Assembly (NCBI GenBank): GCA_963169255.1
Contig: CAUJEJ010000067.1
Span: forward strand, 1 to 45,908
DNA from: Actinomycetota bacterium
GTDB lineage: Bacteria > Actinomycetota > Actinomycetes > S36-B12 > UBA10799
Reading direction: 5' to 3'
DNA length: 45,908 bases
The position numbers and the translations under genes are program-made. Below are positions 1-40,955 of this stretch, piece after piece (position 1 is the first letter of the stretch; every line of letters begins with the position of its first letter). The notes beneath the pieces were generated by a model, which was not told the origin of the DNA, searched no databases, and saw only the letters and a program-made list of their open reading frames with translations.

Positions 1-110
1 AAGGTAGAGGCAGCGACTCGCACTCGATAGCCCGCGCTGATATCTGAGCGAAGTTCGTCGCCAAGAAGCTCATTCACGTTGTCGATGATTCGCATTCGAA
101 ACTCCGCCAT
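1..110 (-). CDS. N-terminus of a helicase with probable PLD-like N-terminal domain (SNF2/DEAD type), runs off left edge
   Basis: Reverse complement of 110..1 reads MAEFRMRIIDNVNELLGDELRSDISAGYRVRVAAST..., resembling the 'MRIIDNxNxLLGDDLKxxLxxGxxLxIAAS' N-terminus of PLD-containing helicases. Only ~36 codons visible. Start could be 110 or 95. Confidence 0.5.
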   Translation of the reverse strand, partial: MAEFRMRIIDNVNELLGDELRSDISAGYRVRVAAST

Positions 111-347
111 ACAAGGCGGACCGCCCTGCGCCGCCGAACTCATTGAGGACAACATCAACAATAGCTGCGATGTCTGACCGAAGTAACGCCAGCAACAGCG
201 GCATTAGATCGAAGGGGTGTCGCCGCCCGCAGTATCGTCCGTTGGGCTGCGGAGTCGACCTGAAACGGCCACGTACCACCGGTTGTGGACGGTAGCCAGA
301 CCGTAGCGGAAGGTGTCAACCAGGTTGAGACAGGTTGGGTTTGAGTT

Positions 348-1355
348 CTAGGTAGGCGTGGCGGGCTCCGTTTCGGGTTTGTTGATCCAGACGGCATTGC
401 TGATCTTCGGTGGCGTGGGCGGTTTGGTGACGAAGCGTTCCGGGTGTGCTGCGTAGGCGGCGTCGAGGGTGCTGGCTCGTTGCCGCCGGATCTGGTCGGC
501 GGTGCCGTAGTGGACGCTTGCCGGGGTGTGCCAGCCGATGCCGCAGTGGCGGTGATCGTGGTTGTACCAAGTGAAGAATTTCTGGCAGAACCCGCGCGCG
601 GCCTCGATGGTCGCGAACGTTCCGGGAAAGTCCGGCCGGTACTTCATCGTTTTGAACTGTGATTCAGAAAATGGGTTGTCATTCGGGACATGCGGGCGGC
701 TGTGAGATTTGGTGACACCGAGGTCAGCGAGGAGAAGCGCAACCGGTTTCGATGCCATCGATGAACCCCGGTCGGCATGCAGGGTGAGCTGTCCGCGATC
801 GATGTTCTGTTTCGCGGCGGTCTCCGCGATCAGTACCTCGGCCAGGGTCGCACGCTCGTGTGGCGCGAGCATCCAGCCCACGACATAGCGCGAGTGAATA
901 TCCAAGATCACATACAGGTAGAAGTACGTCCATTTTGCTGGCCCGTGCAGTTTCGTGATGTCCCATGACCACACCTGGTTTGGTGCCTCGGCGATCAGTT
1001 CAGGTTTCACCGATGCCGGATGAACGGCCTGCGCCCGGCGTTCCCCGTTCTGCCCCGCAGCGCGCAGCAGCCGGTGCATCGTGGACACCGAACACAGATA
1101 CCGGCCCTCGTCGAGCAGGACGGCGTAGACGCTCGCTGGTGCCATCTCAGCGAAACGTTCACTGTTGAGGGCACCGAGCACCGCGGCACGTTCGTCCTCA
1201 CTCAACGCCCGCGGTTGCCGCTTGCGCGGGCATGGGACCCGCGCTGGTGGGGTGGTTCTGCCACGGTAATGCGACGCGCGGGAACGGCCCGTGACCTCAC
1301 ACGCCCGCACCCGTGAAACACCAGCGTCAACGAGTTCACTGATCGCAGTTTCCAT
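348..1355 (-). CDS. IS3-family transposase OrfB (rve integrase core)
   Basis: WSWDITKLHG..., DIHSRYVVGW, HADRGSSM, NPFSESQFKTMKYRPDFP: DDE catalytic motifs present. ATG at 1355 overlaps OrfA stop; TTG 3 nt upstream is an alternative. Confidence 0.92.
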   Translation of the reverse strand: METAISELVDAGVSRVRACEVTGRSRASHYRGRTTPPARVPCPRKRQPRALSEDERAAVLGALNSERFAEMAPASVYAVLLDEGRYLCSVSTMHRLLRAAGQNGERRAQAVHPASVKPELIAEAPNQVWSWDITKLHGPAKWTYFYLYVILDIHSRYVVGWMLAPHERATLAEVLIAETAAKQNIDRGQLTLHADRGSSMASKPVALLLADLGVTKSHSRPHVPNDNPFSESQFKTMKYRPDFPGTFATIEAARGFCQKFFTWYNHDHRHCGIGWHTPASVHYGTADQIRRQRASTLDAAYAAHPERFVTKPPTPPKISNAVWINKPETEPATPT

Positions 1356-1816
1356 CAAGGCTTCAGCGTCGAGTCGGTGTCCGCGCTCTTGGAAAGATCT
1401 TCCAAAAGCGCGGAGAGTTTTGCTTGAACGTCAATCACCTTCCGCGACTGCGCGAGCTCGGCTTCTAGCCGCGTGTTCGCCGCCTTCAACGCCGCGAGCT
1501 CCTTGCCTGCCGTATCCGGTTTCGGGCCCGGACGTTTAGCCGCGAACGGTTCGCCCTGGCTGGCAGCGGCCTGGGCCTTCCACTTACCGACCAGCGAGGA
1601 ATACAGCTTCTCCCTGCGCAACAGCGCACTGCGATCACCACGAGGTGTCGCCTCATACTCAGCCAAAATCTTCTTCTTGTACGCGGCAGTGAACGTTCGT
1701 TTCACGGCCCGCGCCGCGACCTCAGGGTCAGGTGAATCTTCCATCCTGCCAGCATCGTGCACACCAGCAACAGCAGTCATTTCCAACGACATGATCATCA
1801 ACTCCCATGCCCTCAA
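1355..1816 (-). CDS. IS3-family transposase OrfA (HTH + coiled coil)
   Basis: KRTFTAAYKKKILAEYEA... followed by a leucine-rich coiled coil; directly upstream of OrfB. Start codon uncertain. Confidence 0.85.
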   Translation of the reverse strand: MRAWELMIMSLEMTAVAGVHDAGRMEDSPDPEVAARAVKRTFTAAYKKKILAEYEATPRGDRSALLRREKLYSSLVGKWKAQAAASQGEPFAAKRPGPKPDTAGKELAALKAANTRLEAELAQSRKVIDVQAKLSALLEDLSKSADTDSTLKP

Positions 1817-1819
1817 AAC

Positions 1820-2062
1820 TCACACATCAGAACAGCAACGCTGTCTCACCTGACGTTGACACAGAGGGTGCCCCCTTGCCGTCGCTTCCAGCGGTGTTCG
1901 TTGTTTGAGTTCCCATTCTTCGACTTCCTTTTCTATCCATTCAGGAGATCCGCTCAGTCCGCTGAGGCGGAGAGGCATAGGGAAACCGGGCTGGCGCACG
2001 CGCCTGTCTACGGTTCGCAGGTTGCGGTTCCACCGCTCTGCGAGACCCTGACGACCGATCAT
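1820..2062 (-). CDS. AlpA/excisionase-like small HTH protein, C-terminus interrupted by the IS
   Basis: In-frame part of ORF 1820..2335 reads MIGRQGLAERWNRNLRTVDRRVRQPGFPMPLRLSGLSGSPEWIEKEVEEWELKQR..., an AlpA-like pattern (LAxRW..RTVxRRV..PGFPxPxRLSG..W...EVExW). The IS end at 1862 lies in the last codons. Confidence 0.5.
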   Translation of the reverse strand: MIGRQGLAERWNRNLRTVDRRVRQPGFPMPLRLSGLSGSPEWIEKEVEEWELKQRTPLEATARGHPLCQRQVRQRCCSDV

Positions 2063-2291
2063 CTTTGCCACGTTCGTCGATATCGGCTGTGGATGAAACC
2101 CAACCCAACCAAGATTCAACGAGCGTCGCAGGCGCGCTGCAGCTACCCACATCGGAGCAGGTTGGACGCCATAAACGGAGATGGAAAGCGCTCCCTCGTG
2201 GCTGTCCGTCGACCCGCGTGCGTACCGAACGTGCGTAGTAGATCTGTAGTAAAGACTGAGGGGGTAGCTCAATTCCCTCGTGAAATCGTCA

Positions 2292-2347
2292 TAGAGCGAC
2301 CCCCTCCTAAGGGGTAGGCCGGGTGTTCGATTCACCCTCGGGGCACC
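2292..2347 (+). pseudogene. tRNA-Arg(CCT) 3'-half remnant (candidate att scar)
   Basis: Anticodon stem-loop ACCCC-CTCCTAA-GGGGT (2299-2315), variable loop AGGCC, T arm GGGTG-TTCGATT-CACCC (2321-2337), 3' acceptor TCGGGGC-ACC. Upstream sequence does not supply a pairing 5' acceptor and the D region is aberrant. Confidence 0.65.
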
Positions 2348-2418
2348 TCACCACGTGTTTGGTGCGCACGCATCCGCGCCAGCGCCTTCCCGTCAACATC
2401 GACCTCAGGTAGTCACAT

Positions 2419-3249
2419 TCACATTGACATGTCCGTCGACTCCCCAAGGTGCGTCGCGGATTGGCACGTGGGGCACCACCATGTTCGCCGCTGCTCCGGG
2501 GCAGTGCCTTGCGCAGCGACTCTGATCGCTGTCCCACACACTCGGCACGGTTGGCCGTGGCGCCCATAGACCCACAACGGATGCCGCGGATCACCCGTCG
2601 TCACACGCTTCGGCCCCTGCCGATTTGCCATCAGCAACTGATGCGCGTTCGCGACGATCGACGATAGTTCAGGCACCGCTGACACCGGCACCCATGGGTT
2701 CGTTCGTGCCAGGAAGCACAGCTCGCTCTTGTAGACATTTCCGATACCGGCGAGCACACGTTGGTCGAGCAACACTGAACCAATTTGGGCGGCAGGTCTT
2801 GCTTCAAGGTTCGCCAGTGCACGTGCTGGATCCCAGTCCGCACCCAGCAAGTCTGGTCCCAAGTGTGCGAGGCGCTTGGACGCTTCGGCTGGGCTGAACA
2901 CATCAACATGGGGCAGCCGGTACCCGACCGCTGCGGCGGTTGGCGTCTTGATGACGGCACGTATCTGGTGTCCGGGGCCACCGCTCCATCGGTCTGACAT
3001 TTGGTAGATCCGCCACGCGCCATCCATGCCGAGAGTGCTGTGGACAATCACCGACGGCGGTGAATCCCCGCCGTCCGCGACGTCAATGAGTAAGTGCTTG
3101 CCGCGGGATCGAACGCCGAGCACGTGCTTGGACGCAAGGCTGACTGTAGCGAAGCGTGGGACCCGGAAGTCGGTAGCGACAAGTTGGTGGTCGCGCAACT
3201 GTTCATCGAGCTGCCGGGCAACGCGCCAAATCGTGTCGCCCTCCGGCAT
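2419..3249 (-). CDS. Fpg/Nei family DNA glycosylase (endonuclease VIII-like)
   Basis: Starts MPEGDTIWRVARQLDEQL; C-terminal zinc finger CRVCGTAIR...WWCPTCQ. The ORF track extends further upstream but MPEGDT is the catalytic N-terminus. Confidence 0.93.
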   Translation of the reverse strand: MPEGDTIWRVARQLDEQLRDHQLVATDFRVPRFATVSLASKHVLGVRSRGKHLLIDVADGGDSPPSVIVHSTLGMDGAWRIYQMSDRWSGGPGHQIRAVIKTPTAAAVGYRLPHVDVFSPAEASKRLAHLGPDLLGADWDPARALANLEARPAAQIGSVLLDQRVLAGIGNVYKSELCFLARTNPWVPVSAVPELSSIVANAHQLLMANRQGPKRVTTGDPRHPLWVYGRHGQPCRVCGTAIRVAAQGTAPEQRRTWWCPTCQSATHLGESTDMSM

Positions 3250-3400
3250 GTGATTCAGGGTAGTCGCAGGGCCGATGATTGCTGCGTCGCACCAGCCTGA
3301 CCCGTCGCAGAACGTCATCACGGCACCAGCGGAAGCGCACCGATACGCTGCGGGTTGTCGGCAGAGAAAGTAAGGCTGCAGCGCGAAGGATGGAGACGTC

Positions 3401-4747
3401 ATGGCGAATGTCCACGTCACGAGCTCGGGCCCTGATAACGCGCCCGACTCCACGGTTGACGTGGTGGTCGTTGGTGCAGGGCTCGCTGGACTCGCTGCCG
3501 CCCGAACCCTGACCAAAGCCGGTCTAACCGTTCAAGTTCTCGAAGCGGCCACAATAGTCGGTGGTCGGGTACGCACCGATGTCGTCGACGACTTTCGACT
3601 CGATCATGGGTTTCAGCTCTACAACCCCGCCTACCCCGAAGGTCGACGTGTGTTCGACTACGCAAACCTTGACCTGTTGACGTTCACTCGTGGTGCACTG
3701 ATTGGGCTCCCGGATCGAAGCTGGTTGCTAGCCGATCCCCGGAAGGAACCGTTCGCGGCGGGAGAGGCGATCCGGGCACCGGTCGGGTCACTGCGGTCGA
3801 AGCTGCGGTTCGTCCAGTACGCGCTTTCCCGCGAGCACATGAAGCCGGAATCGCTGATCGATCAAAGTGACTGCAGCTCACTTGAGGCTTTGCGGGCAGC
3901 AGGCATCTCCGACTCATTCATCGATACCGTGTTGCAGCCGTTCCTCGCGGGGGTCTTTCTCGAGGCTGACCTAGCGACTTCGCGGCGCTTCATGGACCTG
4001 GTTCTGCGTTCGTTTGTGCGGGGCACCCCCAGCGTCCCGGCCCGAGGCATGCAGGCCCTGCCAGACCAACTCGCTGCTGGACTCCCAGCGGGCACGGTGC
4101 GGACCTCGGTCTCGGTCGCTGGCATCAGCGGCCCGGATTCGCCGACCGGCTCGAATCCGGTTCGCATCGGCACGAATGCCGGAACGGTGAGGGCACACGC
4201 GGTGGTCATCGCCGTTAACCCGAGTGCGGTCGGCACACTGGTCGACGGTTTCACTGCACCTCAGATGAACTCCGTGACGACGTGGTACCACCGTGCGAGC
4301 CAGTCGCCAGCGGAACTGACTCGGGGCAAGCCCGTGTTGGTTGTTGATGGTCGCGGCGCGCAGCATGGCCCGCTCGTGAACTCGGTCGTCGTGAGCCACG
4401 CGGCGCCGGCGTATGCCCCGATGGGCTCCGCGCTAGTGTCCAGCAGCGCGCTCGGCGTTCACGACGACGTCGCCTCGGATGAATCAGCTCTGCGCCACGC
4501 GGAGTTCCTGCACCGGGTTCCAACGGCTCGCTGGGAACTTGTGGGTAAGTACGTGATTCCCGAAGCCCTGCCTGCAACCGCTGCCCCATTGAATGTCCGC
4601 AAGGAGGTGCGCCTTGGTAACGGCCGATACCTGGCCGGGGACCATCGCGACACTCCAAGTATTCAAGGAGCGCTCGTCAGCGGTCGGCGTGCGGCACAGG
4701 CCGTGATCGCCGACCTCCGCGACCGAAATGCGAGTAGTCAACCCTAG
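3401..4747 (+). CDS. FAD-dependent amine oxidase / protoporphyrinogen-oxidase-like
   Basis: VDVVVVGAGLAGLAAARTLTKAGLTVQVLEA Rossmann motif; C-terminal YLAGDHRDTPSIQGALVSGRRAA. Confidence 0.9.
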   Translation: MANVHVTSSGPDNAPDSTVDVVVVGAGLAGLAAARTLTKAGLTVQVLEAATIVGGRVRTDVVDDFRLDHGFQLYNPAYPEGRRVFDYANLDLLTFTRGALIGLPDRSWLLADPRKEPFAAGEAIRAPVGSLRSKLRFVQYALSREHMKPESLIDQSDCSSLEALRAAGISDSFIDTVLQPFLAGVFLEADLATSRRFMDLVLRSFVRGTPSVPARGMQALPDQLAAGLPAGTVRTSVSVAGISGPDSPTGSNPVRIGTNAGTVRAHAVVIAVNPSAVGTLVDGFTAPQMNSVTTWYHRASQSPAELTRGKPVLVVDGRGAQHGPLVNSVVVSHAAPAYAPMGSALVSSSALGVHDDVASDESALRHAEFLHRVPTARWELVGKYVIPEALPATAAPLNVRKEVRLGNGRYLAGDHRDTPSIQGALVSGRRAAQAVIADLRDRNASSQP

Positions 4748-4820
4748 TCACCAGCCGCGCGGATTCGACAGGCTCGGTCGGTGATGCGCCAGTGGCCGGC
4801 GATGCTGCGAAGATTCCGGC

Positions 4821-5921
4821 ATGCGGACTGTTGCTGGAATGTGGACGTGGACTGAGGACGTCACCATCAACGAGTCCTGGCCGATGGTGCTCTTCGGGGT
4901 CCTTGGCGTGCTTGTGCTGGTGTGGTGCTGGCGCCGACGCCGCAACCACAAGCGTTGGTACTTCTGGCCACTGCCGTTGTTGTTGCCCTGCTTACTCCTG
5001 ATCGCAGGTTCCGCCGCAAACAACCACTTCGGGCTGTACGTCCGCCTCGGCGACCTCTTTGATCAATACCCATTCCCGACGGCGTCGGCCTCGACGCTGT
5101 CCGAAACCGCGGGCAGCTTCCCGCAGGGTGTCTCAGTCGCGACCCAGATCCCCGGTACCCAAAGCGGTGTCGGGATGCACCCTGCGTTCATCTGGCTGCC
5201 ACCGCAGTACTTCGAGGAGCCAACCAAACGCTTCCCCGTGGTGTACCTGCTGCCCGGCTCACCTGGCACCTCCGCAGACTGGTCGACTGGAGGAAACGCA
5301 CCCACAACCGGGCTAACGAACGCGCAGGCAGGGAACCCGGCCATACTCGTGTCCGCGAGTGTCGGGGAGAACCAACTCTCAGACACCGAATGCGTCAACG
5401 GCGCTCAGGGCAACTGGCAAACCTACCTGGCCGTGGACGTCCCGGCGTACGTCAATGCGAACGCGCGAACCCTCACCGGCAAGCAGAACCAGGCAGTCGC
5501 TGGCCTGTCGATGGGCGGCTACTGCGCGCAGGCACTGAGCTTGCGGAACCCCACCACTTTCGGTCTGTTCGGGAACTTCTCCGGAACCACGATGCCGACG
5601 TATGACGGTGGAATGCAGGCACTCTTCGGTGATCAAGATGACCTCACAGCAACGGTCAACAGCTACACGTCTGACTGGATCATCACGAATCAACCGGCCT
5701 CCCGATCCGTCATTGGCAAGGTAGTAACCGGCGCGCAAGATGACCCGGCGCTACTGCAGGACGAGTCCCAATTCGTGGCGAAGGCACAGGGGTTTGGGAT
5801 GAACGTCTCGATGGTGCAGCCACCTGGTGACCACAGCTTCTACTTGTGGACCACTGCTCTCCAAATCTGGCTGCCGTGGGCACTCGAGCAGATGGGCAAA
5901 CCCACAGTCATTGCTCCATAG
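4821..5921 (+). CDS. membrane-anchored esterase of the antigen-85/EstD alpha/beta-hydrolase family
   Basis: N-terminal TM helices, nucleophile elbow GLSMGGYCAQ, terminal GDHSFYLWTTALQIWLPW. Confidence 0.85.
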   Translation: MRTVAGMWTWTEDVTINESWPMVLFGVLGVLVLVWCWRRRRNHKRWYFWPLPLLLPCLLLIAGSAANNHFGLYVRLGDLFDQYPFPTASASTLSETAGSFPQGVSVATQIPGTQSGVGMHPAFIWLPPQYFEEPTKRFPVVYLLPGSPGTSADWSTGGNAPTTGLTNAQAGNPAILVSASVGENQLSDTECVNGAQGNWQTYLAVDVPAYVNANARTLTGKQNQAVAGLSMGGYCAQALSLRNPTTFGLFGNFSGTTMPTYDGGMQALFGDQDDLTATVNSYTSDWIITNQPASRSVIGKVVTGAQDDPALLQDESQFVAKAQGFGMNVSMVQPPGDHSFYLWTTALQIWLPWALEQMGKPTVIAP

Positions 5922-5975
5922 CCCGCAGGGACGGAACGAATTGCGAACACCCAGCCCAGCGACGAAGGTTGCCCT

Positions 5976-6365
5976 ATGGCGATCGCAACAAGCACTGACA
6001 GCGCGTACGTAACTCAGATCTCGTCCGGAGGATTCGACTTCACCTCCGACACCACATGGGCCGACCGTGGTGGTGAAACCGCACCTACACCCCATGACCT
6101 GTTGGACGCCTCGCTCGCCGCGTGCATCGCGATGACGGTAAGGATCGCGGCTGATGCACGGCAGACTGCGCTAGATCGCGTGACGGTAGAGGTCATCAAC
6201 GACGACGAGAACCCGGCCTCGAGTTCGTTCCACTGCACGGTCACCCTCGAAGGCGACCTTTCCGAGAAGGAACGCGCGGGCCTACTCCGGGTCGCTCACG
6301 CGTGCCCGATCAGCAAGTTGCTCAGCAAGACGATCGAGATCGGAATCTCTGAGGCGAGCAGCTAG
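5976..6365 (+). CDS. OsmC family protein
   Basis: PTPHDLLDASLAACIAMTVRIAADARQ and HACPISKLLSKTIEI motifs. Confidence 0.9.
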   Translation: MAIATSTDSAYVTQISSGGFDFTSDTTWADRGGETAPTPHDLLDASLAACIAMTVRIAADARQTALDRVTVEVINDDENPASSSFHCTVTLEGDLSEKERAGLLRVAHACPISKLLSKTIEIGISEASS

Positions 6366-6370
6366 TCAGG

Positions 6371-7987
6371 TCACTCCATCGGCACTGCGGCATCGTCAGC
6401 TAGTGAATCGGCGACGTCCTGTCGCTTGCGCAGCGGCACTTCCTTGAGGAAGAACGACAGCACGAATGCGAACGCCATAAATGGCACCGCGAAGAGGAAC
6501 GTGTTGTCGATCGCGTGGGACATCGCGGTCAAGACGTGGTCCTGCACATCTGGCGGCAACGCAGTGATATTGCTAATTGACGATGTGAGCTCGCCACCAT
6601 TCGCGCCAACAAGCGGAACCCCGGGCAGTTCCAACGCGAGTTGCGCTGCCAGTTGCGCAGTCCACACTGCTCCGAACACGGCAGTTCCAAAGGAACCACC
6701 GATCGACCTGAAGAACGTCGACGTACTCGTTGCGGCTCCGAGCTGGCGCTGTTCGACGTTGTTCTGGACCGCGATAATCAAGACCTGCATCACGTTTCCG
6801 AGGCCCGCGCCGAGAATCAACATCGCCGCGGAGAGGTACCAGAGGCTCGTGAACTGATCCACCCTGGACAACATCAGGAGACCGATGGTTGCCAGCCCGG
6901 TGCCGATGATCGGAAAGATCTTGTACTTGCCCGTTCGAGTGATCAACCGGCCGCTGAGGATCGAGGTGAAGAGCAGCCCGACCATCAACGGGAGAAGCTG
7001 CAATCCCGCAACTGTCGGGCTTGCCCCGCGCACAACCTGCATGTAGATCGACAAGTAGACGATCGCGCCAAACAGTGAGAACCCAACAACGAACCCGATG
7101 GCCGACGACACCCGCATCACTGGCAGGCGGAACATATTCATCGGAATCATCGGCTCGGGATGGCGCAACTCCTGCAAGACGAACAAGACCAGCACCAGCG
7201 TGCCGCCAACTGCAAGTCCGACGATCTGCGGCGAACCCCAGTCGTAGCGCTGCCCTCCCCAGACAGTGACCAACAGCAACAACACCACACCAAGTACCAA
7301 GAGACATGCCCCGAGCCAGTCAATCTTGTGTTTGCGTTTGTGAACCGGCAGGTGCAGGACCGCACCGAGGACGAGGAAAGCCGCAACGCCGATTGGCACG
7401 TTGATGTAGAACACCCACCGCCACGACAGATGCTCGGTGAACAACCCGCCCAGCAGCGGGCCGATCACACTCGCGACGCCGAACACCGCGCCAAACAGTC
7501 CGCTGTATTTACCGCGTTCACGAGGCGGCACGATGTCCGCTATCACCGCGAGCACCAACACCATGAGTCCACCCGCACCCAGACCTTGCAGCGCGCGAGT
7601 GGCGATGAGCTCCCACATGTTCTGCGACAGCCCGGCCAGCATCGAGCCAATCACGAAGACAACGACTGACGACTGAAGCATGAGCTTGCGGCCGTAGAGG
7701 TCGCTGAGCTTGCCCCAGATCGGCGTGCTCGCGGTTGATGCCAACAAGTAGGCAGTGACGACCCATGACAGTTCGTCTAGACCACCGAGCTCGCTGGTGA
7801 TTGTTGGAAGCGCGGTCGAGACGATCGTCTGATCGAGCGCGGCCAGCAACATCGTCAGCATCAACGCTGACAAGATCCACCACAGTCGGCGCGAGTTCTC
7901 GCTAATCGCTTCGTTCTGCAGCGTTACGTCTAATTGCTCCGCCTGCGCACCTTCACTCACAGCCGAATGATCGCACTCACGCCCCAC
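6371..7987 (-). CDS. MFS drug-exporter, DHA2/EmrB-QacA family
   Basis: [13 protein letters not shown], 14-TM-like hydrophobicity, [14 protein letters not shown]. Confidence 0.93.
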
Positions 7988-8041
7988 GACATGTCGCGTC
8001 GATATTGCCGCTGTGACGAAGGGAACGAACCAAGCCGCCTA

Positions 8042-8056
8042 GCCTCGCGCCGAGGC
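8042..8056. terminator. short hairpin downstream of amidohydrolase
   Basis: GCCTCG-CGC-CGAGGC perfect inverted repeat just after the minus-strand stop at 8069. Confidence 0.4.
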
Positions 8057-8068
8057 AAAGCGGTCGAG

Positions 8069-9664
8069 CTACGCGCTCCAGGCGACGGTGCCGTCAATTC
8101 GCGTTTCGTGCACAGTGATGTCTGCCCAGGTCGACGGGTCGGCTTCCCACGGATTCGCCGACAGCAACGCATAGTCGGCCTTCTTCCCGACTTCGAGGGT
8201 TCCGCGATCGTCACCGTGTACCTGCCACGCCGCGTCACTGGTCACAGCACGTAGTGCAGCTTCCGGGCTGACGCGTTCTGCTTCGTTCAATACGTCGCCA
8301 CCATCGCGCAGCTTTCGTTCGACTGCCGTGCGCGCTGAGAGCAGCGGCTGCATCGGGCTCACCGAATAGTCGCTGTGAAGCGATGGCCGAAGCCCCGCTG
8401 CCAATGCGCTCGCAACGCTGTCCAACTCGTTTGCCCGCTCGGCACCAATGATGTAGTCGCGGAACACGCGACCCCAGTAGTAGACGTGGTTCATCAGGAA
8501 GCTCGGCTGCACCCCGATCCGCGCCATACGCTCGAAGTGCTCGGACGTCGCGAGCGAGCAGTGTTCGATGCGGTGGCGGTGATCACCGGCGTCAGCGGTA
8601 TCTCCGAGTGCTTGCTCGTACGCGCTCACCACCATGTCGATTGCCGCGTCACCATTGGCGTGGGTCATCACTTGCCAGCCGGCGTTGTGGCCTTCTTTGA
8701 TGAGCTCAATGCACTTCTCGATATCCATGTTTGCGTGACCCCGGTTGTCGGGCTGGCCGACGTAGGCGTCGCGCATGTAGCCGCTGCGGCCTTGGTTTGA
8801 TCCGTCCGACAGCACCTTCCATGCGACAGCGCGCACCATGTCGTCGCCCGCGCCTGGGGTCACGCCAGCCGATGCCCATGCTTCGTTGCCCAGCATCGCG
8901 TGTTGGGCCGTCGAGATCCGCACCGGCAAACGGTTAGCCGCATTGAGTTGGGTCAGCAGGGAAAACTCACCCGGCCCCATCACTGCACCCGTCAGGCCTT
9001 CGCGCATCGAGGTGACGCCGACCGAAGCAGCCTTGTTCATGATGTCGATCAACCCGGCCGCCAATTGTGCTTGGCTCCGTTGCGGGATGACCGCCATAAA
9101 CTTCAGGATCGCGCCGGATTCGCCAACGATTCCGTTCAGCTTGCCGTCAGTTTTGCCGAAGAATCCGCCCGGCGGATCTGGTGTTTCTTCCGTGACACCC
9201 GCAAGCTCGAGCGCTTTGGAGTTCACGTACAAGTAGTGCATCGATGCGTTCAGAACACCGACTGGGTGCTCGGTGCTCACCTGGTCAAGAATCGCCCGCG
9301 TCAATTCAGGCTCACCCGGGTAGAGGCTTGGATCGAACAGTTGGCCCTGGACCCAGTCGCCTGCTGCAGTGTTCGCGGCTTCAGCTTTGAGCTTCGCGAC
9401 CACATCATCAAAGGTGGGGTTCTCGATCGCCGAACAGTTCAGCCAACTGTCTGCCAGCACCGTCGACCAGAGATGCATGTGCGGCTCAACAAAGCCGGGG
9501 ACGATGAAACCGTCGCCGCCGTCGACGATTTGAGTTGTCGGATCCTTGAGGCCCTCAACGTCACTCGCCGAACCAATACCGATGATGTTGCCACCCTTGA
9601 TCGCCATCGCGTCGGCGGTGGGATTGCTGGCATCACCCGTTGCAATCTTCCCGTAGACGATCAT
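8069..9664 (-). CDS. amidohydrolase family protein (YtcJ-like)
   Basis: MIVYGKIATG...GGNIIGIG, GFVEPHMHLWS, HRIEHCSL, LHSDYSVSPMQPL. Start at 9664 chosen; ORF open to 9988. Confidence 0.88.
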   Translation of the reverse strand: MIVYGKIATGDASNPTADAMAIKGGNIIGIGSASDVEGLKDPTTQIVDGGDGFIVPGFVEPHMHLWSTVLADSWLNCSAIENPTFDDVVAKLKAEAANTAAGDWVQGQLFDPSLYPGEPELTRAILDQVSTEHPVGVLNASMHYLYVNSKALELAGVTEETPDPPGGFFGKTDGKLNGIVGESGAILKFMAVIPQRSQAQLAAGLIDIMNKAASVGVTSMREGLTGAVMGPGEFSLLTQLNAANRLPVRISTAQHAMLGNEAWASAGVTPGAGDDMVRAVAWKVLSDGSNQGRSGYMRDAYVGQPDNRGHANMDIEKCIELIKEGHNAGWQVMTHANGDAAIDMVVSAYEQALGDTADAGDHRHRIEHCSLATSEHFERMARIGVQPSFLMNHVYYWGRVFRDYIIGAERANELDSVASALAAGLRPSLHSDYSVSPMQPLLSARTAVERKLRDGGDVLNEAERVSPEAALRAVTSDAAWQVHGDDRGTLEVGKKADYALLSANPWEADPSTWADITVHETRIDGTVAWSA

Positions 9665-10022
9665 GTCGGCAGCCGCGCGTTGAGCGCGCTGAACGGGCAA
9701 CCCTGAGCGGCCCATCGGGGTGACCAACGCTTGCTGGAGGGGCCCGAACGCGGCGTGCGAGAGCGTTCGGGTGATCTCTAGGCGATCCGGCGTGCAGCAC
9801 CCATCGATGATTGACGAGTGACGGACAGGCGTAATCAGCGACATACAAGCTCCCGTATGGAACACACCCCGGCGGTGTGGCGGACGTTTTCTGGCAACGT
9901 ACTCCCGAACCACCCCGCGTTGCAGCGGAGCAAGCCGCGCAATCCCCCGGACCGGTGCACTTGCAAGATCGCGCGCCGATCCGGCCACCGCTTAGGCGTC
10001 TGAGCTCAGATCCCTGCGAGTA

Positions 10023-11282
10023 CTAGCGCTTGCGGGAGAAGTCAGGCCGTAGCGGCATACCCGAAATGCCGTCAACGGTGTTCGTGCCAAGGAACTGATG
10101 CAACTGAATGATGTTATGCGCGAAGCCGTACTCCGATGCCGCCATGTACAGCCGCCACACCCGGGCCTTGCGCTCGCCAACCTCAGCGACGGCGGCATCC
10201 CAGTTGTCTTCCAGATTCATGCGCCAATGGTGGAGAGTCTTTGCATAGTGCACACGAATGTTCTCTTCGTGCTGCAGTTCCCAGCCCTCATTCGTCAACG
10301 CGGTGACGATCTTTGCCGGACCGGTCAATTCCCCGTCAGGGAAGATGTACCGGTTCACGAAGCTGTTGCGGTAGCGGACCTTTTGCTGATCATCGAAGCG
10401 GGTGATCGAGTGGTTCAACAAGCGACCTTCTGCCTTAACCTTGCTGCGCAAGAACGAGAAGTACGCCGGGTAGTTCTTTTCGCCGATGTGCTCGGTAAGT
10501 CCGATCGACGAGATCGCATCGAAGTCGCTTTCAGGGACATCGCGGTAGTCGCTGAAACGAACTGCCGCTCGACTTTCCAGGCCCGCCTTGACCACTGCTT
10601 CTTGACCCCAGTCTGCCTGAGCCTTTGACAGCGTCACACCGATGATCTCGACGCCGTAGTGCTGCGCGGCATGCAGAACCATTCCGCCCCAGCCGCAACC
10701 CACGTCGAGCACTCGCATGCCGGGTTTGAGGTCGAGCTTGCGGCAGACGAGGTCGAACTTCTCCTCCTGCGCTTGTTCCAAGGTCGCATCTGCAGTCGGG
10801 AAGACCGCGCAGGTATAGGCCATCGACGGACCCAACACGTAGCGATAGAACTCATTTGAGACGTCGTAGTGATGGGCGATTGCCTCGGCGTCACGGCCCT
10901 TTGAGTGGCGACCACCCCGGAGCTTCTTTTCTTCCGGTGGAAGCTCTCCACGGTTGAACACCTTGCCGGCTTTGACAAACGTCGGCCCGTAGTCGCGAAC
11001 CAAGCGCAGCTTCTCCGACGTCGGCATCTGCTTTGGGCGTACGTCGCTGAGCGCCTCGAAGAGTTCGACGACGTCGCCAACGATCTCCACTTCACCCGCA
11101 ACGTAAGCGCGGGCAAGACCAACCTGACCGGGGTGCGACATGAACAGCTCAAGCGCGCGAGGCGAGCGAACCTCGATCCGAACGGGCGAACCGGGCGCAC
11201 CGGTCTTACTGCCGTCGTAGGCCACAAATTCAACGGGTGCATCCGCACCGGCGACGCTATCGAACACCTCGGCTAGCTTCAC
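10023..11282 (-). CDS. SAM-dependent methyltransferase, cyclopropane-fatty-acid synthase family (TmsB/BfaB-like candidate)
   Basis: YDVSNEFYRYVLGPSMAYTCA, LDVGCGWGGMVLHAA, GVTLSKAQ, SIGLTEHIGEKNY. Confidence 0.92.
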   Translation of the reverse strand: MKLAEVFDSVAGADAPVEFVAYDGSKTGAPGSPVRIEVRSPRALELFMSHPGQVGLARAYVAGEVEIVGDVVELFEALSDVRPKQMPTSEKLRLVRDYGPTFVKAGKVFNRGELPPEEKKLRGGRHSKGRDAEAIAHHYDVSNEFYRYVLGPSMAYTCAVFPTADATLEQAQEEKFDLVCRKLDLKPGMRVLDVGCGWGGMVLHAAQHYGVEIIGVTLSKAQADWGQEAVVKAGLESRAAVRFSDYRDVPESDFDAISSIGLTEHIGEKNYPAYFSFLRSKVKAEGRLLNHSITRFDDQQKVRYRNSFVNRYIFPDGELTGPAKIVTALTNEGWELQHEENIRVHYAKTLHHWRMNLEDNWDAAVAEVGERKARVWRLYMAASEYGFAHNIIQLHQFLGTNTVDGISGMPLRPDFSRKR

Positions 11283-11337
11283 GGTTCCTCCATTGGTCCG
11301 CGCCGCACACCTGCACGTGCGGCGACGGAAACTCAGC

Positions 11338-12747
11338 CTAGCGACGCTGGACGACCTTTGCGAAGAGATCGGTCAACCGATTTTGCGGGTCATATCTGGA
11401 CTTGACCTGCTCGTAGTGTTCGCCGCCATACAAACGGTCGAATTCATCCTTGGAATAGTAGGCGCTCGAATACAGAGACTTGTGGCCGTCGAGCCTCGTC
11501 ACTTCGGCCTCAATAAGTCGGTTCAAAGCCCCATCAGCTGGGTTGGATCCAGGCTCTCGTGCGACGGTGGACCAGAAGCCAACGTTCACGTACGTCGCCG
11601 ACGTGTCCATCTCGTACAGCGGCCACTTTGTGACCCCATCGCGCGAGCGCAGCGGGCACACCCAGACCGGCTCTATGCCAATCTCTTTGTGGAAGAAATC
11701 GAGGAACTCGGGCAGACGGTCAACGGGGATCTCGATGTCTTGAATCACTTCTTCTTTTGGTGGCTTGCCGAACAATTTGAACTGGCGGTCGCTAAATCTG
11801 TATTTGCGATCGGCCGCAATGATCTTCCAGTACACATCGGACCGGAGTTTGTCCTTTGGCCAGAGCCGACGGATCGCCGGCTTCTGCGCCCCAAACGCGC
11901 GTGAACACCAGAACCAATCGGTATCCCAGCGCCAGATGTAGTCCCGGGCAGTCAATACGTCGAATGATCGTTGCTGAATGGACCGGTAGTAGATGTTCAT
12001 TCCGGTGTAGTCGCTCGGTTTGGTGTAACCCACTGGCAATGTATTCGACCAGCGCCCGATCGTGAGGTACTGCTCCTCAGGCGAGAAGACCGTCCCGTCC
12101 AGGAAATCGATTCGGTTGCCGTGGTGCGTTCGACTAACCGTGAACTCCGCGATCGCGTCAGCCATCGCGGAGGCACTCGGATAACGAAGGTGTTCGAGCA
12201 CGACATACGCCTGGATTGGGGCAAGCTCTATCTTCAGGCGAAGCGCGTAGCCCAACGACCCGTACGAGTTGGGGAACGATAGGTAGAGGTCACGGTTGGG
12301 ATCGTCGACCGCGCCGCTAGCGGTGACAATCTCGCCGCTGCCGGTCAACACGTCCATCTCGATGACGGATTCATGCGGAAGTCCTTCGCGGAACGACGAC
12401 GACTCAATTCCGAGTCCTGTCACCGCGCCACCAAGAGTGATCGTTTTGAGTTGCGGAACAACTAGCGGCATCAATCCATAGGGCAACGTCGCGTCCACGA
12501 GGTGCTCATACGTGGTCATGCCGAGGACGTCCGCAGTCCGGGCGGCCGGATCGACGTGGAGGACACCATCGAATGCAGCGACGTCTAAACCCGGCGTATC
12601 AATAGCAGTACGCGTACGGAAGAGGTTCGACGTCTTCTTTGCCAAGCGCACCGGGCTTCCGGTGGGAATCGCAGCGTATTGCTGCTTCAGGCGTTCAACG
12701 AGTTGCTGGTAGCGCGCATCGGCATCAACGTCACCCATGGTGGACAC
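11338..12747 (-). CDS. FAD-binding oxidoreductase (DHCR24-like; TmsA/BfaA-like candidate)
   Basis: GLDVAAFDGVLHVDPAARTADVLGMTTYEHLVDATLPYGLMPLVVPQLKTITLGGAVTGLGIESSS (FAD_binding_4). GTG start; upstream of the CFA-like methyltransferase on the same strand. Confidence 0.9.
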   Translation of the reverse strand: MSTMGDVDADARYQQLVERLKQQYAAIPTGSPVRLAKKTSNLFRTRTAIDTPGLDVAAFDGVLHVDPAARTADVLGMTTYEHLVDATLPYGLMPLVVPQLKTITLGGAVTGLGIESSSFREGLPHESVIEMDVLTGSGEIVTASGAVDDPNRDLYLSFPNSYGSLGYALRLKIELAPIQAYVVLEHLRYPSASAMADAIAEFTVSRTHHGNRIDFLDGTVFSPEEQYLTIGRWSNTLPVGYTKPSDYTGMNIYYRSIQQRSFDVLTARDYIWRWDTDWFWCSRAFGAQKPAIRRLWPKDKLRSDVYWKIIAADRKYRFSDRQFKLFGKPPKEEVIQDIEIPVDRLPEFLDFFHKEIGIEPVWVCPLRSRDGVTKWPLYEMDTSATYVNVGFWSTVAREPGSNPADGALNRLIEAEVTRLDGHKSLYSSAYYSKDEFDRLYGGEHYEQVKSRYDPQNRLTDLFAKVVQRR

Positions 12748-40622: not shown

Positions 40623-40635
40623 CTTGAGGCCTTCC

Positions 40636-40777
40636 CTCATCTGTCCCGGTCGCCGCACTTTGCGGTCCGGGTCGGAATTGGCACCTCTCGTTACTGCGCG
40701 GGTATTGCTACCGCTATGCGCAATGCGGATGGTTGCCGGGGCTTCTTCGGGCCGGTCCCTCTGCCCCTCTGGATGAG
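40636..40777 (-). ncRNA. SAM-I (S-box) riboswitch
   Basis: Minus strand CTCATCCAGAGGGGCAGAGGGACCGGCCCGAAGAAGCCCCGGCAACC...GGTAGCAATACC...GAGAGGTGCCAATTCC...GACAGATGAG. Confidence 0.95.
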
Positions 40778-40955
40778 CTGTATTCAGTTGTCGAGCAAGT
40801 ACTTTCTTCGATTCGTTCCTATTGTGCCCTTGACGTGGTGCGAACGCCTGTGACTTAGCCAAGAATCGTGACTGAGGTCACCAGCGCCTTGCCTCACGTA
40901 AGTTGGCTGCAACGATAGCGCGAATAACGGTCCATCTGCCAAGGGGGTTTCTCAA

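What the first reader, a model, noticed from the sequence alone, without database searches (positions are those of the whole stretch)
2292..2347. tRNA-Arg(CCT) 3'-half remnant as candidate attachment scar of an integrative element
The sequence has a clean anticodon arm (CCT), T arm and 3' acceptor strand, but the upstream 5' sequence cannot form the acceptor stem and the D region is disrupted. Tyrosine-recombinase elements integrating at a tRNA 3' end leave such a partial copy at the distal boundary. Everything to the left is mobile-type content and everything to the right is core-type, so this looks like the exact boundary.
Basis: partly seen in the sequence, partly recalled or inferred. Interest (0 to 1): 0.7.

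Follow-up and report, generated by a model that had tools for sequence, protein, structure and literature searches.

The report
Broken tRNA copy marks mobile-island edge
The odd tRNA fragment is the leftover 3' half of a tRNA-Arg gene that a mobile DNA island displaced when it inserted; the same genome holds the repaired intact copy at the island's other end, a well-known arrangement newly found here.

Summary
Confirmed. Window 2291-2346 is a 3'-half tRNA-Arg(CCT): Rfam aligns only model positions 6-65 (32.8 bits) and ARAGORN finds no tRNA. The same genome has one intact tRNA-Arg(CCT), C190:13384-13458, sharing an identical 30-nt block (D-loop end to variable loop).

In relative G002, one intact tRNA-Arg(CCT) lies between homologues of genes left of the C190 tRNA and homologues of genes right of the window remnant. 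Here those flanks are split by private DNA. So the C190 tRNA is attL and the window remnant attR of an island in tRNA-Arg(CCT).

A bipartite repeat, GTAGTA-N5-GTAGTA, occurs exactly twice in the 2.78-Mb genome, once just inside each island end: probable integrase arm-type sites. An excisionase-like gene (2062-1862, -) lies beside attR, with an IS3-family element (314-1862) inserted next to it.

Joining C190's 5' half to the remnant's 3' half gives a complete tRNA closer to G002's (71/75) than today's intact copy is (69/75), so the island probably replaced the T arm.

Not shown: the integrase and most of the island, which lie on unlinked contigs. Mechanism known; a new example of a known kind.

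The parts
2291..2346 (+). tRNA-Arg(CCT) 3'-half remnant: attR of the island (host-derived 3' half)
   Evidence: 56 nt at 89% to intact tRNA at C190:13384-13458; tRNA model positions 6-65 only; not a tRNA by ARAGORN
2291..2320 (+). 30-nt block identical between remnant and intact tRNA; the strand exchange must lie inside it
2258..2270 (+). GAGGGGGTAGCTC, inverted copy (12/13) of 2294-2306 in the remnant; possible extra core-type site on the element side
   Evidence: 0 of 1000 shuffles reach 12/13
2235..2251 (+). GTAGTA-N5-GTAGTA, putative arm-type integrase site; the only other copy in the genome is beside the intact tRNA at C190:13560-13576
1862..2062 (-). excisionase-like helix-turn-helix protein, C-terminus cut by the IS3 element
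   Evidence: PHROG 66 excisionase E = 1.1e-4; below the Pfam limit; coordinates
314..1862 (.). IS3-family insertion sequence (two transposase frames, 348-1358 and 1355-1816, - strand) with TGTCAAC...GTTGACA ends
   Evidence: NF033516 transpos_IS3 172 bits, cut-off 160; PF00665; ends
1..313 (.). private island DNA running off the contig, no recognisable gene
4821..9988 (.). right flank conserved with G002: esterase, OsmC, MFS, amidohydrolase

Best explanation
A mobile element integrated by site-specific recombination into the single tRNA-Arg(CCT) gene, with the exchange inside the 30-nt block covering the D-loop end, anticodon arm and variable loop. The element carried its own 3' half of the tRNA, so the upstream junction (attL, C190:13384-13458) kept a working tRNA. 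The original 3' half was pushed to the far end and survives as window 2291-2346 (attR). GTAGTA-N5-GTAGTA pairs just inside each end are probably the arm-type sites an integrase binds; the excisionase-like gene beside attR would direct excision. An IS3-family element later inserted next to that gene. Shown: the two copies, the joined flanks in relatives, the private DNA between, the paired repeats, and that the two host halves rejoin into a full tRNA. Inferred: that the enzyme is a tyrosine recombinase, the role of the repeats, that one element (not several) fills the gap, and whether it is a prophage, an integrative conjugative element or a frozen relic.
For: Intact tRNA-Arg(CCT) in the same genome, 30 nt identical to the remnant. 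G002:C97 carries one tRNA-Arg(CCT) between homologues of C190's left genes (Rrf2-like, MMPL 84%) and of the window's right genes (esterase 75%, MFS 88%, amidohydrolase 81%); G003 and G010 agree in part. DNA inside both junctions is private: no long match in 395 genomes of the class. GTAGTA-N5-GTAGTA occurs exactly twice in the genome, once inside each junction; reversed-pattern control none; 1 of 5000 shuffles gives a shared pair. Rebuilt empty site is a tRNA by ARAGORN, attR is not, and it is nearer to G002 (71/75) than the present intact copy is (69/75). Excisionase-like gene.
Against: No integrase could be assigned; five PF00589 proteins over the cut-off exist in the genome but none is linked. 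The two ends are on different contigs, so length and single-element origin are unproven. The genes touching the tRNA differ: ThrE and an MFS gene lie left of it in G002 and are not at C190 (ThrE absent from G000), Nei and amine oxidase right of the remnant are elsewhere in G002, and G002 has a 100-N gap one base after its tRNA.
Confidence: 0.93

Rival explanations
1. Layered island: the remnant bounds one element, but Nei and amine oxidase (2419-4747) are remains of an older insertion at the same tRNA, so the true edge of foreign DNA lies near 4.8 kb. The remnant would still be an attachment site.
For: Both genes are at other loci in G002 and not at this locus in G003. What follows the tRNA differs between G002, G003 and G010.
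Against: No second tRNA fragment in the genome. GC of the right part equals that of C190's left part, 0.615. The G002 gap could hide genes.
Confidence: 0.2
2. Decayed second tRNA gene: an ancient tandem or dispersed duplicate of tRNA-Arg(CCT) that lost its 5' half, without any island.
For: The sequence TAGCTCA of a D arm also occurs just upstream of the shared block.
Against: Relatives have one copy, at the place where the two contigs would join. DNA inside both junctions is private and shares a unique repeat pair. The T stem is still fully paired, unlike a decaying duplicate.
Confidence: 0.04
3. Unusual functional tRNA with an enlarged D loop, or with an intron.
For: D-stem halves GCTC and GAGC are present, with a 23-nt loop.
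Against: The acceptor stem cannot form (GAGGGGG against TCGGGGC), ARAGORN rejects it, the fold is a different hairpin, and an intact tRNA-Arg(CCT) exists.
Confidence: 0.01

Closest known systems
Genomic islands in tRNA 3' ends with a displaced tRNA fragment (Islander-type islands; PMC6917214)
   Same: Intact tRNA at one end, displaced 3' fragment at the other, private DNA between, island-free relatives
   Different: Integrase not located; the shared block is only 30 nt identical, with a swapped but paired T arm
Actinobacterial integrative conjugative elements with tyrosine recombinases (pSAM2-type; PMC3218068)
   Same: [quoted passage not shown] a tRNA-Arg example exists (Fean6303)
   Different: Integrase, replication and transfer genes not seen on the available ends
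Prophage attachment sites with paired arm-type sites (lambda, mycobacteriophage L5; general knowledge)
   Same: Short direct repeats on both arms outside a core with inverted symmetry, 11-bp phasing
   Different: GTAGTA-N5-GTAGTA cannot be assigned to a known integrase; binding untested

Membership tests
tRNA-targeting integrated island (Islander type) | intact target tRNA in the same genome | tested here: met
   C190:13384-13458, tRNA-Arg(CCT)
tRNA-targeting integrated island (Islander type) | displaced tRNA 3' fragment at the distal end | tested here: met
   window 2291-2346
tRNA-targeting integrated island (Islander type) | island-free locus in relatives with flanks joined at the tRNA | tested here: met
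   G002:C97, by gene order; a 100-N gap and variable adjacent genes prevent base-level proof
tRNA-targeting integrated island (Islander type) | DNA between the two ends absent from relatives | tested here: met
   only the available ends: 1,028 bp and about 0.4 kb, no long match in 395 genomes
tRNA-targeting integrated island (Islander type) | tyrosine-recombinase integrase inside the island | tested here: inconclusive
   none on the available ends; five candidates elsewhere in the draft genome, unlinked
Actinobacterial integrative conjugative element | replication and FtsK-like transfer genes on the element | not tested
   island interior not assembled with the ends
functional tRNA | complete cloverleaf with paired acceptor stem | tested here: not met
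IS3 family (element at 314-1862) | IS3 transposase above the curated cut-off | tested here: met
   NF033516, 172.1 bits against 160

The most novel reading that the evidence does not exclude
The element re-wrote the T arm of the host's only tRNA-Arg(CCT) with a different but fully paired version (AGCGG/CCGCT for GGGTG/CACCC), so elements that rebuild their tRNA target spread tRNA alleles between species; and its integrase uses an undescribed arm-site motif, GTAGTA-N5-GTAGTA, with an extra inverted core-like site at attR.
Probability: 0.45. Interest if true: 0.35.

Novelty: new member of a known kind. Interest (0 to 1): 0.25.

Why it matters
It fixes one boundary of a mobile island in a draft genome and links two contigs that the assembly left apart. 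It is a worked case of how an integrating element keeps a single-copy tRNA working while swapping part of its sequence, and it supplies a genome-unique arm-site motif with which to find the matching integrase. The underlying biology is textbook.

Tried and rejected
Functional tRNA: rejected. Integrase on the window's left end or C190's right end: six-frame readings show none. Assigning one of the genome's integrases to the island: C20 and C105 have their own tRNA beside them (Pro-GGG, Met), the others show no link. Overlap of the window's left end with other contigs: only a 26-nt match to C196 at the IS end. Relatives of the excisionase-like protein in phages and plasmids: none. Viral contigs with the anticodon core: two hits, with other tRNA sequences.

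Full report
Observation. Window 2291-2346 carries the anticodon arm with CCT, variable loop, T arm and 3' acceptor strand of a tRNA-Arg. The upstream GAGGGGG cannot pair with TCGGGGC, and the D region holds about 13-14 extra bases. Rfam reports tRNA at 2263-2339 with 32.8 bits over model positions 6-65 only, ARAGORN reports none, and the RNA fold is a hairpin between GAGGGGGTAGCTC and GAGCGACCCCCTC rather than a cloverleaf.

Intact copy. The window is contig C67 of a 2.78-Mb draft genome in 258 contigs. The genome has one intact tRNA-Arg(CCT), C190:13384-13458 (+), 70 bits. It matches the remnant over 56 nt at 89%: 30 nt are identical (C190:13403-13432, window 2291-2320), after which the T stem differs by paired changes (AGCGG/CCGCT against GGGTG/CACCC).

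Empty site in relatives. G002:C97 (19,348 bp) carries a single tRNA-Arg(CCT) at 5566-5640. On one side lie homologues of window genes 4785-9991 (esterase 75%, OsmC 61%, MFS 88%, amidohydrolase 81%); on the other, homologues of C190's left part (an Rrf2-like protein 86%, a large secreted protein about 70%, MMPL 84%, and C190 1283-2287 at 82%). G003:C9 shows the same neighbours around its tRNA with different genes in between, and in G010 the tRNA adjoins homologues of window 10026-12747. So the two G000 contigs were one locus, now separated by DNA that begins at the tRNA 3' end in C190 and ends at the remnant in the window.

Limits of the synteny. The genes that touch the tRNA vary. G002 has a ThrE-like and an MFS gene between tRNA and Rrf2; G000 lacks ThrE and has a 669-aa protein there. 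Nei and amine oxidase, right of the remnant, are at other loci in G002. A 100-N scaffold gap follows the tRNA of G002 by one base. The empty site is therefore shown by gene order, not base by base.

Island ends. The 1,028 bp after the C190 tRNA and window 1874-2290 match only stretches of about 30-50 nt outside this genome among 395 genomes of the class. GTAGTA-N5-GTAGTA is present at window 2235-2251 and C190:13560-13576 and nowhere else in the genome; the reversed-pattern control has none. A shared spaced hexamer of this kind arose in 1 of 5000 shuffles. A third, degenerate copy lies at C190:13622. The sites lie 39 nt from the identical block at attR and 127 and 189 nt at attL, within the range of arm-type integrase sites (general knowledge; role inferred). 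An excisionase-like protein, 2062-1862 (-), matches PHROG 66 at 1.1e-4 but no Pfam family, and an IS3-family element occupies 314-1862.

Exchange. The two copies diverge on both sides of the 30-nt block, so the crossover is inside it. Joining C190's 5' half with the remnant's 3' half rebuilds a tRNA that ARAGORN accepts; attR and the reciprocal junction are not accepted. The rebuilt tRNA is nearer to G002 (71/75) than the present intact copy is (69/75), whereas the present copy is nearer to G003 (72/75 against 66/75). G007 also has the AGCGG T stem. The simplest reading is that the lineage of G000 and G002 had the GGTG-type T arm and the element brought back an AGCGG-type arm. This rests on few differences and is inferred.

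What remains open. The integrase and most of the island are unassigned; five PF00589 proteins over the cut-off exist in the genome without linkage. The inverted copy GAGGGGGTAGCTC at 2258-2270 (0 of 1000 shuffles) may be an extra core-type site; its role is unknown. Phage, conjugative element or relic cannot be told apart.

Known kind. Islands in tRNA 3' ends with a displaced fragment are catalogued (Islander, cited in PMC6917214), and the vast majority of actinobacterial integrative conjugative elements with tyrosine recombinases sit in tRNA 3' ends (PMC3218068). This is a new member of that kind.

Noticed in passing
window 40634-40779 (-): SAM riboswitch (RF00162, 71.1 bits).
   Followed up: no
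L069 (G000:C20) 1222-4475: A second likely island: tRNA-Pro(GGG) followed by a PIN-domain protein with a small partner frame, an integrase (3312-4475, -) and an HTH_17-like protein.
   Followed up: partly
L070 (G000:C105) 1-478: 3' end of an integrase gene facing a tRNA-Met gene, another likely integration site.
   Followed up: partly
L054 (G001:C422) 1-2330: In relative G001 the DNA upstream of the tRNA-Arg(CCT) site is kept almost up to the tRNA start, but the tRNA is missing and a long secreted repeat protein frame takes its place.
   Followed up: partly
L078 1300-1520 (IMGVR_UViG_3300035523_000130): A viral contig carries a near-complete tRNA-Arg(CCT) directly after what looks like an integrase C-terminus: the same target tRNA in another setting.
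   Followed up: no
L010 2296-2603 (G000:C190 right end): Island left end: a 43-aa Cys/His-rich frame without family match, and a sigma-70 region 4-like frame cut by the contig end.
   Followed up: partly
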